Assembly (NCBI GenBank): GCA_030522415.1
Contig: CM060104.1
Location: 19,512,825 to 19,576,824 of the forward strand
Source: Channallabes apus
Taxonomy: Eukaryota > Chordata > Actinopteri > Siluriformes > Clariidae
DNA: 64,000 nucleotides
Reading direction: 5' to 3'
Below, piece by piece: positions 48,221 through 63,737 of the stretch (position 1 is the first letter of the stretch; every line of letters begins with the position of its first letter). Position numbers and translations under genes: made by a program. The notes beneath the pieces are model-generated. The model had not been told where the DNA came from and searched no databases. It saw only the letters and a list, made by a program, of their open reading frames with translations.

Positions 48221-48589
48221 TCATTGTTTCTTGTTAATCTCTCTTTTATAGGCCACAATTCGGTTATAAACATAAAATTTTACACTCTGCCAGTCTCTTT
48301 CTTTAAGAGCTAATGGCTCTGATCTAATGCATTTTTCACAGGCCAACTTCCCTGGTACGAGGCATGAAGTGATGAATGTCATCATGTGTTTCTCCACTGC
48401 ATGGATCTCATTTACTTGGCAGGCCTTCTTCTTTTTTGCAACAGATGTTTTACCTAAATGTACAAAAGCACATTAGTTTAATTTAACAAACTGTAAATGT
48501 TCGAGACATATACAGAGTTAAATAATATGATAACATGAAGAGCCATTTATTTGCAGTAGAGACGCAACAGAAAACCGTTTATATATATA

Positions 48590-48620
<31 letters not shown>

Positions 48621-51600
48621 ACGCATACATACACACGCACACAGTGGCTTGCAAAAGTATTCAGCCCCCCTTGAACTTTTCCACATTTTGTCACATTAAA
48701 GCCACAAACATGAATCAATTTTATTGGAATTCCACGTAAAAGACCAATACAAAGTGGTGTACACGTGAGAAGTGGAACGAAAATCATACATGATTCCAAA
48801 CATTTTTTACAAATAATTATTCAGCCCCCTTTGGTGTGAGTGCAGTCAGTTGCCCATAGACATTGCCTGATGAGTGCTAATGACTAAATAGAGTGCACCT
48901 GTGTGTAATCTAATGTCAGTACAAATACAGCTGCTCTGTGACGGCCTCAGAGGTTGTCCAAGAGAATATTGGGAGCAACAACACCATGAAGTCCAAAGAA
49001 CACACCAGACAAGTCAGGGATAAAGTTATTGAGAAATTTAAAACAGGATTAGGCTACAAAAAGATTTGCAAAGCCTTGAACATCCCACGGAGCCACTGTT
49101 CAAGCGGTCATTCAGAAATGGAAGGAGTATGGCACAACTGTAAACCTACCAAGACAAGGCCGTCCACCTAAACTCACAGGCCGAACAAGGAGAGCGCTGA
49201 TCAGAAATGCAGCCAAGAGGCCCATGGTGACTCTGGACTAGCTGCAGAGATCTACAGCTCAGGTGGGGGAATCTGTCCATAGGACAACTATTAGTCGTGC
49301 ACTGCACAAAGTTGGCCTTTATGGAAGAGTGGCAAGAAGAAAGCCATTGTTAACAGAAAACCATAAGAAGTCCCGTTTGCACAGCAAACATGTGGAAGAA
49401 GGTGCTCTGGTCAGATGAGACCAAAATGGAACTTTTTGGCCAAAACGCAAAACACTATGTGTGGCGGAAAACTAACACTGCACATCACTCTGAACACACC
49501 ATCCCCACTGTCAAATATGGTGGTGGCAGCATCATGCTCTGGGGTGCTTCTCTTCAGCAGGGACAGGGAAGCTGGTCAGAGTTGATGGGAAGATGGATGG
49601 AGCCAAATACAGGGCAATCTTGGAAGAAAACCTCTTGGAGTCTGCAAAAGACTTGAGACTGGGGCGGAGGTTCACTTTCCAGCAGGACAACGACCCTAAA
49701 CATAAAGCCAGGGCAACAATGGAATGGTTTAAAACAAAACATATCCATGTGTTAGAATGGCCCAGTCAAAGTCCAGATCTAAATCCAATCGAGAATCTGT
49801 GGCAAGATCTGAAAACTGCTGTTCACAAACGCTGTTCATCTAATCTGACTGAGCTGGAGCTATTTTGCAAAGAAGAATGGGCGAGGATTTCAGTCTCTAG
49901 ATGTGCACAGCTGGTAGAGACATACCCTAAAAGACTGGCAGCTGGAATTGCAGCAAAAGGTGGTTCTACAAAGTATTGACTCAGGGGGCTGAATAATTAC
50001 GCACACCCCACTTTTCAGTTATTTATTTGTAAAAAATGTTTGGAATCATGTATGATTTTCGTTCCACTTCTCACGTGTACACCACTTTGTATTGGTCTTT
50101 CACGTGGAATTCCAATAAAATTGATTCATGTTTGTGGCTGTAATGTGACAAAATGTGGAAAAATTCAAGGGGGCCGAATACTTTTGCAAGTACAGTGGCT
50201 ATATACACACACACACACACATGCATGCATGCACACACATATATATATATATATTATATATACATGATTCTGGTTTAATATGCAAATACTATGTTTAACT
50301 ACATCTAAAAACTCCGGTTTCTCTCACGGTCCAAAGACATGTAGATATAGTGAACTGCCTATAACTCAGTTCAGTTAAATACATCATTAAGAAAGGAGTA
50401 TAGCACTTGTATAAACCTGCCTAGAGCTGGCCAAAAATATCTTTTCACTTTGATATTAAAGATTCTTTATTTTTTTGCAAATTGTTGTCAAAAAAGCCAA
50501 ATTGTATTGACCATGATTTAATTTCTAAAGGCAATAAAAGGGTGACTATTTTTATAGGCATTGTAGCTAAGCAAATTTATTAATATAGTATGATCACCTT
50601 TAGCAGAAGACCTTTCAAGACCTTTCATATTCACTGTGGTCACAACTTCAGTGTCTAATGGTGGTGCACACACGTTTTCCTGTGTATCTGCAGACACAAT
50701 TAAGCCATAACTGTCATTTTTACTTGTTACAATTTTTTTTCTCCAACATTTTATGTGTAATAACATTATGATTATTATCAATTTGGAAAAAATTAATACC
50801 TTCGTGTTCTTCACAGTTTTCACCCTCCTCGCTCATCACTTCATTATTTAACTCCATCTCCTCTGCAATAAAGAAATATGATAAATATGCATAATGTCAG
50901 TTCTTACACCATAGGCTTTTTATGCTTAATGTGGCTTATATTAAATAAATATCCAAACATACACCAAGACAAGTAGCTGAGTTACTGTAATTAACAATAA
51001 TAAAATTAATGAAATGTATTTTATATACCATTTGGGTCAATAGTGATCTCATCCAAATTCTTGCCCTTAAATTGGCCAACTCTTCCTTGTTCTAGCGCCA
51101 TAAGGACTTTGCTGACTTTTGCAAGCTGTAGAGTCTTTTCAGGAAGGCGATAGTATTCCCGATGAATTCGAATATCGTGTCCAAGAAAATTTGCCAATTG
51201 ATCCAGGTCTGTGTCTCTCAAGTTTAGAACTGTCGAAAGTGTCGCTGCTTGCTTTCGTAATTTTGTGGATGTAAGTGCACTTGGAAAATCCGCACCACAA
51301 TGCTTGGCAAAGTAGCGGATACAGTCCGAGCCTCTGTAATGGGACACTGCAGTTGGCCGGGCAAAAAGATAAACATTTTCCTTTAACACTCCACAAGACT
51401 CCCTATTCTTTACAATCAACTCCAAAGCAGCCATCATTTTGGGTGTCAACAGAATGGGAACTGGACGTCCCCTTTTTCCTCTGATGACAATTCTTGAGAA
51501 ATGCCGGCATAATTTTTTCTCAACCTCAGACAGTGCCCAATCTATATCAGCATGTGGTTTAGTGGTGTCCCTGGTCAAAAATGCAGATAAAGGCATATTA

Positions 51601-62442: not shown

Positions 62443-63425
62443 ATAGATATATACACTGACTAGATGCGTCAGCGCGGACCCCATCTTGTGTCGGGTGAAG
62501 CCGTGTCTACTCTGCATTAGTTAACATTGGCAGAGAACTAACAACGATTAAAATCACCTTAATCTGCTTAATTTTCAAGTGATTTTCAAGCCGTTTGGTT
62601 TATTATAAATGTCAGACATATATTTATAATATAATGAATTAATCTAAGTTCTATCATAAATATGTGATATATCATATACAATACAATACTTAGAAAGAGA
62701 AATTTTAAGCTTTTGATATTAATCTACTTCAAAACTAGGTGCAAGTTTATTATTCTGCCACTTCAGTGAACTTAAAATTACCTATTGTTACTTACCTTAG
62801 CCTAGTCTACTGCACACACAATGGCTACACTGGTGTGATATCCATACTTAAAAATACATGTTAATTAAAACATTTGAATTGTACTGGTTTATTTTGTACA
62901 TCCGCAAGCCTGCAATACAATGACCAGCGTAAAATGGTCAGGAAGTCCATAATAGTTTTTTCCCCCACTTTATTTGTTTAACTCATGCCTTTATTAATTT
63001 AAATTTTGCTCTATTATTTATCTATTTATTTATATTTTATATAGACTTTATTTTTTTTATTATTCATGTTTTTTTTCATATCAGTATCAGCATCCTTGTA
63101 ATTGTTTTGTGCAATTGTAGAACAAATTAATTAGTTATGTAGGTGTGTCTAAGTATTATATTGTATGACATATCACATATTTATGATAGAACATAGATTA
63201 ATTCATTATTTTACTTATATCAAATAATTTATTATTATGTCTTACATTTATAATATACCAAACGGCTTGAAAATTAAGCAGATGAAGGTGATTTTAATCC
63301 TTGTTAGTCTCTCTGCCAATGTTAACTAATGCAGAGTGGACGCGGCTTCCCCCGACACAAGATGGCGGCGATGTTGCCGTGTGCTTACAGGCCCAAGGCG
63401 ACTTCTAGTCAGTATATATATCTAT
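62443..63425. mobile_element. Foldback element (about 1 kb) with long inverted arms
   Basis: The left arm (catagatatatacactgactag…atcttgtgtcggg…ctgcattagttaacattggcagag…ttttcaagccgtttggt…ctatcataaatatgtgatat) recurs in reverse order and complement at 63130-63425. Arms are about 280-300 bp and 85-95% alike by eye. The right arm contains caagatggcggcg (YY1-like, 63359). No coding frame. Confidence 0.85.
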
Positions 63426-63545
63426 GGTAAAGTCCGCTAGCATAGCAGCCGCGTTTACATTTCAGTTAGTTATAAAATCCTTAAAACACACAAAAAACTA
63501 TTACAAGCGGTACATGTTACCCATAGATATAAAAAACAAACATAC

Positions 63546-63737
63546 CTTTCGTGGTATTTAGATGCATTTCCTCGTGTCAGCGCGGAATACCGTAGAATCT
63601 CGCATTAGGCCGATAGCCTTTGGCTTCCACCTTTTAGCAGGATAAGCAATGGAGATGGGTATTGTAGTTCTTTTTCTCTTCCTGTGTAGCGTGAACGGAC
63701 CAATCGCGCAGTAAAAAAAAACTACAATCCACTATTC
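63546..63737 (-). promoter_or_regulatory. Probable promoter and first exon of the SET-fusion gene
   Basis: On the minus strand, ATG 63567 opens MHLNTTK to donor aaag|gtatgt (63546/63545). Its phase fits the acceptor tctgtag at 61974, giving an in-frame extension before MPRRISPRAD. Upstream are 'actacaatacccatctcc' (63651-63668), resembling a ZNF143/SBS site, a CCAAT box (63700-63704) and, on the plus strand, another actacaatcc (63721). The region is GC-richer than its flanks. Confidence 0.45.

What the first reader, a model, noticed from the sequence alone, without database searches (positions are those of the whole stretch)
48221..63567. Chimeric gene joining a KMT5A-like SET domain to zinc fingers and a tyrosine-recombinase-like domain
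Seen: fifteen minus-strand exons with consistent phases join a SET domain, a repeated linker, two zinc fingers, an integrase-like domain and a C-terminal module into one 1162-codon frame. Known: SET enzymes of the KMT5A group mono-methylate H4K20, and tyrosine recombinases mobilise Crypton, DIRS and phage elements; Crypton-derived proteins have been domesticated in vertebrates. Inference: this is a fish-specific host/transposon fusion that targets a histone-type methyltransferase to DNA through a recombinase-derived domain, or a mobile element that captured a SET domain. It could be a genome-defence or element-control factor.
Basis: partly seen in the sequence, partly recalled or inferred. Interest (0 to 1): 0.92.

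Follow-up and report, generated by a model that had tools for sequence, protein, structure and literature searches.

The report
Jumping gene with built-in histone methyltransferase
This gene, from what is likely a catfish genome, is one of ten near-identical copies belonging to a roughly 17-kilobase mobile element found in GT repeats on eight contigs; its predicted protein joins a KMT5A-like (histone-methyltransferase-type) domain to a tyrosine recombinase that likely moves it, so it would be a vertebrate jumping gene that carries its own chromatin-modifying enzyme.

Summary
In detail: one minus-strand gene joins a KMT5A-like SET domain, repeated linker exons, two zinc fingers, a tyrosine-recombinase (YR) fold and a C-terminal module. 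The best model has 12 coding exons and 1,096 codons, not 15 and 1,162. The window copy is not a single domesticated host gene. In its own genome ten copies of the YR exon (0-7 differences in 2,022 bases) lie on eight contigs, each with the SET exon upstream. They belong to a ~17.4-kb element (window 47033 to 441 bp past the right edge) with 22/25-matching inverted ends, set in GT runs at 17 of 17 ends read; one insertion has five uninterrupted paralogous sites. Five of five copies read in full keep all splice sites and an open frame. The fusion is old (SET/YR distances r=0.85, 62 proteins), spans ray-finned fish and a frog, likely moved horizontally (shad/minnow YR 97%), and has a cyprinid branch with SET kept but the recombinase tyrosine lost. 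Movement by its own YR, DNA binding and methylation are inferred. SET-bearing transposons (oomycetes) and microsatellite-targeting YR transposons (CryptonV) are reported; my searches found no protein combining them.

The parts
47033..64000 (-). mobile element (this copy); continues to position 64441, i.e. 441 bp beyond the window (L037:417-441 is its 5' inverted end)
   Evidence: colinear homology to copies on C2, C5, C26, C27 stops at these ends (C26: 3' end only, its 5' end is in Ns); flanks differ
47006..47029 (.). (CA/TG)n run at the 3' end of the element; the matching run at the 5' end is 64445-64510, outside the window
   Evidence: GT runs of at least 10 bp at 17 of 17 element ends read
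47033..47057 (+). 3' inverted end, 22 of 25 bases matching the 5' end at 64417-64441 in inverted orientation
47249..47429 (.). 62-bp tandem repeat (2.9 units) near the 3' end; two of its units carry TGGGGAC
63546..63567 (-). coding exon 1 (start codon)
61863..61973 (-). coding exon 2, start of SET region
57526..57688 (-). coding exon 3, N-terminal half of SET domain
57037..57229 (-). coding exon 4, C-terminal half of SET domain (NDD..PNC, YDYG)
   Evidence: 10 copies identical in protein in the genome
56089..56199 (-). coding exon 5, linker exon copy 1 (111 bp, phase 0-0)
55357..55467 (-). coding exon 6, linker exon copy 2
54630..54740 (-). coding exon 7, linker exon copy 3
54289..56596 (-). 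~727-bp tandem repeats carrying the linker exons and 11 of the element's 19 TGGGGAC motifs
53893..53958 (-). coding exon 8
51029..53045 (-). coding exon 9: acidic region, two zinc fingers, YR core-binding and catalytic regions
50800..50862 (-). coding exon 10
50598..50687 (-). coding exon 11 (an alternative donor after 50622 also keeps the frame)
48221..48453 (-). coding exon 12: C-terminal module and stop codon
49242..49979 (+). broken Tc1-type transposase nested in the element (not part of its machinery)
   Evidence: Pfam PF01498, PF13358 on separate frames
59899..60384 (+). second nested Tc1-type transposase fragment
   Evidence: Pfam PF13358

Best explanation
The window holds one copy of a 17.4-kb mobile element, a family with ten near-identical gene copies on eight contigs of this genome, and its single intact gene is predicted to make a 1,096-residue SET-zinc-finger-tyrosine-recombinase protein that likely excises the element and reinserts it into GT repeats, while its SET domain would methylate chromatin at DNA bound by the same protein. 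Shown: the gene, its copies, the shared inverted ends, the GT runs at the ends, an insertion with uninterrupted counterparts, intact frames in the five copies read in full, and the old age of the fusion. Inferred: the recombinase binds the two inverted ends, which brought together in a circle would form inverted arms around a GT core, and exchanges strands with a GT core in the target; the zinc fingers read the TGGGGAC motifs found at the ends and in the linker repeats; the KMT5A-like SET domain, thereby tethered, modifies nucleosomes (H4K20 by analogy) or another local protein so that the element stays expressible or its integration is licensed.
For: (1) Copies: the 2,022-base YR frame (2,017-base exon plus five intron bases) is found in ten places on eight contigs, 0-7 bases different from the window copy (genome counts are lower bounds); the SET exon is identical in protein in ten places, one 2.7-6.4 kb upstream of each. 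Introns are present in the five copies read in full, so this is not retroposition. (2) Ends: five copies read at length (the window copy over 84 kb, four over 40 kb) end at the same 3' point, four of them also at the same 5' point, the fifth being Ns there. In the genome the 5' end has 8 matches shown as 100% (one of them partial), the 3' end 9 full-length matches at 98-100%, eight copies having both. GT runs of at least 10 bp sit at 8 of 8 5' ends and 9 of 9 3' ends read, against 1.6% of positions in or within 3 bp of a GT/CA run of 12 bp or more in 214 kb (the two length limits differ slightly). (3) Uninterrupted site: the C3 copy lies in an LTR retroelement; 5 of 5 paralogous stretches fetched (of 18 others matching at >=95%) are uninterrupted there and have GT runs of 5 to about 20 bp. 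(4) Gene intact: 5 of 5 fully read copies keep every splice site and an open frame of 1,096-1,133 codons with 3-4 linker exons. (5) Catalysis: YR fold; R, K, R, H and Y all present in 50 of 62 SET-bearing proteins. SET: EY, G, N and Y-x-Y positions kept in 62 of 62. (6) One unit: SET and YR distance matrices correlate r=0.85, best of 999 permutations 0.23; 28 of 49 YR loci I paired in this genome have a same-strand SET exon 1.4-6.7 kb upstream, chance about 0.001 each. (7) Movement between hosts: shad and minnow copies share 97% of YR and 92% of SET, two catfish genera 89% and 84%, two subfamilies within shad 46% and 54%; in shad two subfamilies each have YR parts 98-100% identical on at least five contigs, told apart by length. 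(8) TGGGGAC occurs 19 times in the element (17.5 kb; 11 of them in the tandem linker repeats, so not independent) and 2 times in 66.5 kb around it.
Against: No transposition, DNA binding or methylation was observed; no transcript was mapped here. The His of the HxxR box is Thr in 60 of 62 proteins, and the SET NH motif is ND in 62 of 62, so either activity could be altered. Signs of selection on the YR exon are only moderate: 112 synonymous to 77 non-synonymous differences over 45 non-independent pairs; against the window copy four copies carry 1-3 non-synonymous beside 2-5 synonymous changes; the 3' flanks differ more than the frame in nine of nine comparisons (0.47-2.8%) but the 5' flanks in six of nine only (one of these, 9.8%, looks like misaligned repeats; four lie at 0-0.13%). 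The tenth copy (C27:906120) had neither end found, the C26 5' end lies in Ns, and the C3 copy has lost its 5' inverted arm. At the C3 site the few bases left of the GT run differ from the uninterrupted copies and the GT runs are longer, so how much GT the element carries, and any target duplication, is undetermined. 21 of the 49 YR loci paired have no SET exon within 20 kb, and 88 of 116 SET places have no YR partner, so SET is not required by all relatives. The exact joined-flank pattern found nothing. Foldseek's own E-values for the YR are not significant.
Confidence: 0.8

Rival explanations
1. A mobile element moved by another enzyme: the inverted ends are ordinary terminal repeats recognised by a DDE transposase supplied elsewhere, or copies spread by recombination between GT tracts; the SET-YR protein is cargo or a regulator.
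For: Inverted ends of 25 bp look like terminal inverted repeats; GT tracts are recombinogenic (recalled); HxxR His is missing.
Against: YR residues R, K, R, H, Y are kept in 50 of 62 proteins and the frame is open in all ten copies; the nested Tc1-type frames are broken; insertion at a GT run with the right flank complete fits site-specific recombination.
Confidence: 0.1
2. A domesticated host gene family spread by segmental duplication, in which a recombinase-derived DNA-binding part targets a methyltransferase.
For: Open frames in all ten YR exons; a cyprinid branch without the YR tyrosine but with SET residues kept shows that domestication can happen.
Against: Homology stops at the same points in the copies read and flanks are unrelated; uninterrupted paralogous sites; copy number, near-identity across eight contigs and host-discordant phylogeny.
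Confidence: 0.05
3. The SET domain is passive cargo or a protein-protein interaction module without methyltransferase activity.
For: NH to ND change in 62 of 62 proteins; relatives without SET exist.
Against: Tested positions EY, G, N and Y-x-Y are invariant in 62 of 62; SET residues stay conserved in the cyprinid branch after the YR tyrosine is lost.
Confidence: 0.25
4. Assembly artefact: one locus wrongly placed many times.
For: 5-kb N stretches near two copies.
Against: Copies differ in noncoding bases, linker number (3 or 4 in the five read), inserts and flanks; shad shows the same pattern.
Confidence: 0.01

Closest known systems
Crypton DNA transposons, in particular microsatellite-targeting CryptonV
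   Same: DNA transposon encoding a tyrosine recombinase; insertion into microsatellites is stated for some CryptonV families (PMC8869645, passages); non-autonomous derivatives and a proposed circle intermediate (PMC3212892, passages)
SET-encoding DNA transposons of oomycetes (HarbingerS, some MuDR)
   Same: transposon that carries a SET histone-methyltransferase gene (stated in PMC12730594, passages)
   Different: those are Harbinger and MuDR lineages (DDE transposases, recalled) of Phytophthora; here the SET domain is fused to a YR in vertebrates
SETMAR (SET fused to a mariner transposase)
   Same: one protein joining a SET domain to a mobile-element recombinase (name seen in PMC2200798, passages; the rest recalled)
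   Different: SETMAR has a DDE transposase and is a host gene (recalled); here the recombinase is a YR and the whole gene is multi-copy and mobile
KMT5A / SETD8
   Same: closest solved SET domain
   Different: NH motif reads ND in 62 of 62 family proteins compared; linker and partners differ
Endogenous nimaviruses with YR (majaniviruses)
   Same: large integrated element with C2H2 plus SAM-like YR that inserts into simple repeats (PMC10871703, passages)
   Different: viral genomes of crustaceans targeting TAACC repeats; no sequence relationship tested

Membership tests
Crypton | encodes a tyrosine recombinase | tested here: met
   fold and motif spacing; no profile match
Crypton | no reverse transcriptase | tested here: inconclusive
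   none in the gene; of the other frames in the element only six were scanned (Tc1-type DDE pieces and weak matches); a fragment near 58473-58700 looks LINE-like by eye and is taken as nested
Crypton | catalytic tetrad R-H-R-Y (as given in PMC3212892) | tested here: not met
   R, R and Y mostly met; the HxxR His is Thr in 60 of 62 proteins
Crypton | no terminal inverted repeats; short direct repeats or none (PMC3212892) | tested here: not met
   22/25 inverted ends plus GT runs at both ends
Crypton | sequence placement within CryptonA/F/I/S/V | not testable with these tools
   no Repbase sequences at hand
CryptonV-like microsatellite targeting | insertion specifically in microsatellites | tested here: met
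   GT at 17 of 17 ends read; uninterrupted paralogues have a GT run of 5 to about 20 bp there
KMT5A group of SET enzymes | SET sequence closer to KMT5A than to other solved SET domains | tested here: met
   105 bits to KMT5A, 62 to MLL1
KMT5A group of SET enzymes | H4K20 monomethylation activity | not testable with these tools
   needs biochemistry; NH to ND change noted
SETMAR | SET fused to a mariner (DDE) transposase | tested here: not met
   fusion partner has a YR fold and no DDE profile match
HarbingerS / MuDR with SET | Harbinger- or MuDR-type DDE transposase | tested here: not met
   no such profile in exons 3, 4, 9 or in 45 aligned relatives

The most novel reading that the evidence does not exclude
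A widespread, horizontally moving vertebrate transposon whose recombinase is itself a histone methyltransferase: it reads its own TGGGGAC-marked DNA, writes a chromatin mark there, and jumps between GT repeats through a circle; fish have captured it as a host gene at least twice (a SET-keeping, recombinase-dead form in cyprinids and a SET-less form in catfishes and their relatives).
Probability: 0.4. Interest if true: 0.93.

Novelty: new variant of a known kind. Interest (0 to 1): 0.84.

Why it matters
Transposons are usually targets of histone methylation; here the mobility protein itself carries the methyltransferase domain. Ten near-identical copies, with the whole gene intact in all five that were read in full, make mobility and self-marking testable in a living fish. 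The cyprinid branch that keeps SET residues but has lost the recombinase tyrosine offers a natural test of whether the SET part has a use of its own. Such copies are annotated in fish genomes as host proteins (uncharacterized, or 'N-lysine methyltransferase KMT5A'), so gene-family and chromatin studies in fish may be counting a transposon.

Tried and rejected
Pfam, PHROGs and NCBIfam on the ZnF-YR exon gave nothing usable, so the YR call rests on motifs and fold. Foldseek alone was weak. Viral contigs: 174 pattern stretches, none confirmed. The exact joined-flank pattern found no match because the paralogues differ by a few bases; a flank search solved it. A search with shad P0192 and a 6-kb look downstream of one SET-only copy found no recombinase for a related SET family of about 55 copies. 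Literature: ten full-text searches listed no paper on a SET-YR fusion or this element; two of them were poor (swamped by 84,785 papers, without a hit), and Repbase Reports and most subscription journals are not in that library. Of the papers I saw search listings and passages only, no whole text. Retroposition rejected (introns in the five copies read), segmental duplication rejected (shared ends, unrelated flanks).

Rows dropped: one search paired 49 of the 74 YR matches (25 left out by me: further pieces of listed loci and some eight other fragmentary places) with 116 of the 121 SET matches (five second pieces left out). The 277 proteins come from three searches, of which the best 120 each were listed (of 400, 261 and 349 hits), plus one window exon translation; many are isoforms. 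62 of 162 proteins with near-complete SET and YR remain after removing YR near-duplicates and proteins over 1,650 residues. The alignments for folding were hand-picked: 60 and 45 sequences, degenerate ones mostly left out.
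Full report
What is there. The window (G000:C1:19512825-19576824) contains a minus-strand gene with 12 coding exons, all introns GT-AG, 1,096 codons from 63567 to 48221. A database protein named for Clarias gariepinus (P0001) matches exon by exon and is 95% identical over the large exon, so the genome is likely that of a Clarias-like catfish; it is not named. The order is SET (exons 2-4), three 37-codon linker exons in ~727-bp tandem repeats (exons 5-7), exon 8, one 2,017-base exon with an acidic stretch, two zinc fingers and the YR, and three exons ending in a conserved C-terminal module.

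It is a mobile element. The YR frame occurs ten times on eight contigs at 0-7 differences in 2,022 bases, each with a SET exon identical in protein upstream. Five copies read at length end at one 3' point and four of them at one 5' point (the fifth has Ns), 64441 to 47033 in window numbering, about 17.4 kb; other copies span up to 27.7 kb through inserts and extra linker units. The two ends are inverted copies, 22 of 25 bases. In the genome the 5' end has eight matches shown as 100% (one partial) and the 3' end nine full-length matches at 98-100%; the tenth copy shows neither and C3 has lost the outermost bases including the 5' arm. Each of the 17 ends read is set in a GT run of at least 10 bp, with different DNA beyond. 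In C3 the element interrupts an LTR retroelement; five of five fetched paralogues are uninterrupted there, with a GT run of 5 to about 20 bp, though a few bases left of the run differ. Weaker relatives of the ends occur elsewhere, among them a ~6.3-kb pair of ends on C20 and a 2.5-kb pair on C6 (too short for the full gene), both in GT runs, and a junction of one element's 3' end to another's 5' end on C8.

The gene is kept intact. Five of five copies read in full have every splice site and an open frame, 1,096 codons with three linker exons or 1,132-1,133 with four; all ten YR frames are open. The SET-to-YR distance of the ten copies runs from 2.7 to 6.4 kb, largely in steps near 727 bp, which suggests one to six linker units; only the five fully read copies were counted directly. 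Over 45 (non-independent) pairs the YR frame shows 112 synonymous and 77 non-synonymous differences (simple count), fewer non-synonymous ones than the roughly three quarters expected without constraint. The 3' noncoding flanks differ more than the frame in nine of nine comparisons with the window copy (0.47-2.8%); the 5' flanks do so in six of nine, one of these (9.8%) probably misaligned repeats. Selection is therefore indicated, not strongly proven.

Family history. Of 277 homologous proteins 190 have SET, ZnF and YR in this order (162 of them with the C-terminal module), from bichir, mormyrids, eel, tarpon, shad, carps, catfishes, characins and many percomorphs, and from the frog Ranitomeya; a second frog (Pseudophryne) has the module without SET. 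SET and YR distances agree (r=0.85), so the two parts have long travelled together. The YR tree disagrees with the hosts: shad and minnow copies are 97% identical while two catfish genera are 89% and two shad subfamilies 46%. This is protein-level evidence for horizontal transfer, not proof. Shad has at least 11 loci in two subfamilies, with YR 98-100% identical within each on at least five contigs.

Domestication beside mobility. A SET-less relative at C12:18713913 (57% to the window YR; partial 57% matches on C5 and C16 were not examined) is 96% identical to an Ictalurus protein over 623 residues and 73-81% to Trichomycterus, Brachyhypopomus and Electrophorus; its YR motifs are degraded (GHELIIQDEFY; RSREAE in the Ictalurus protein). 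It looks like a host gene. In cyprinids eight of eight sequences of one branch lost the YR tyrosine and keep the tested SET residues, except one change at the GRG arginine. The SET part therefore probably has a use apart from transposition.

How it most likely works (inferred). In a circle the ends would read inverted arm - GT - inverted arm, the usual layout of a YR core site with GT as the exchange region; the same GT in the target explains where it lands. TGGGGAC motifs, 19 in the element (11 of them in the linker repeats, four near each end) against 2 in 66.5 kb around it, are the best candidates for the zinc-finger or arm-binding site. The SET domain would then act where the protein sits. 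I commit to self-marking of the element as its likeliest role at about 0.4; the mobile SET-YR element itself I hold at about 0.9.

Known and new. SET genes in DNA transposons are stated for oomycete HarbingerS and MuDR (PMC12730594, passages), microsatellite insertion for CryptonV (PMC8869645, passages). Ten literature searches listed no SET-YR fusion. Membership in Crypton is not claimed: two listed features are not met and the phylogenetic one could not be tested. It works like a microsatellite-targeting YR transposon.

Noticed in passing
G000:C1:43046580, C4:11647704 and others: About 55 copies of a related SET exon (roughly 58-61% to the window's) have no YR exon found near them; one was read for 6 kb downstream without a YR (a LINE-like reverse transcriptase frame, by eye, is there).
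   Followed up: partly
G000:C12:18713913-18715700 (L011): SET-less relative with degraded YR motifs, 96% identical to an Ictalurus protein over 623 residues: likely a domesticated recombinase-derived host gene of catfishes and relatives.
   Followed up: partly
P0077, P0082, P0084, P0087, P0090, P0093, P0100, P0188: Cyprinid branch with SET residues kept but YR tyrosine lost: a candidate SETMAR-like domestication.
   Followed up: partly
G000:C3:11013355, C4:6103700, C14:23085382, C6:124493, C18:32078865, C18:32308964: Six YR copies (36-38% to the window) with open 691-codon frames and no SET exon found within 20 kb upstream: probably a SET-less sister element.
   Followed up: no
L047 (G000:C8:5908300-5909700): 3' end of one element joined through (TG)n(AG)n to the 5' end of another: tandem insertion in one repeat or a circle-like junction.
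   Followed up: partly
L050 (G000:C6:47227900-47231350): 2.5-kb element sharing both related ends, GT at both sides: likely non-autonomous derivative.
   Followed up: partly
window 40553-41724: About 1.1 kb of strand-biased GA/CT-rich simple sequence giving open frames on both strands.
   Followed up: no
window 24006-24725 (-): 239-codon Ser/Thr-rich open frame ending in a hydrophobic segment, mucin-like membrane protein by eye.
   Followed up: no
PMC11075544 (passages): Zebrafish chromosome 4 right arm holds several SET genes of one gene tree treated as host histone methyltransferases; they might belong to this element family (not tested).
   Followed up: no
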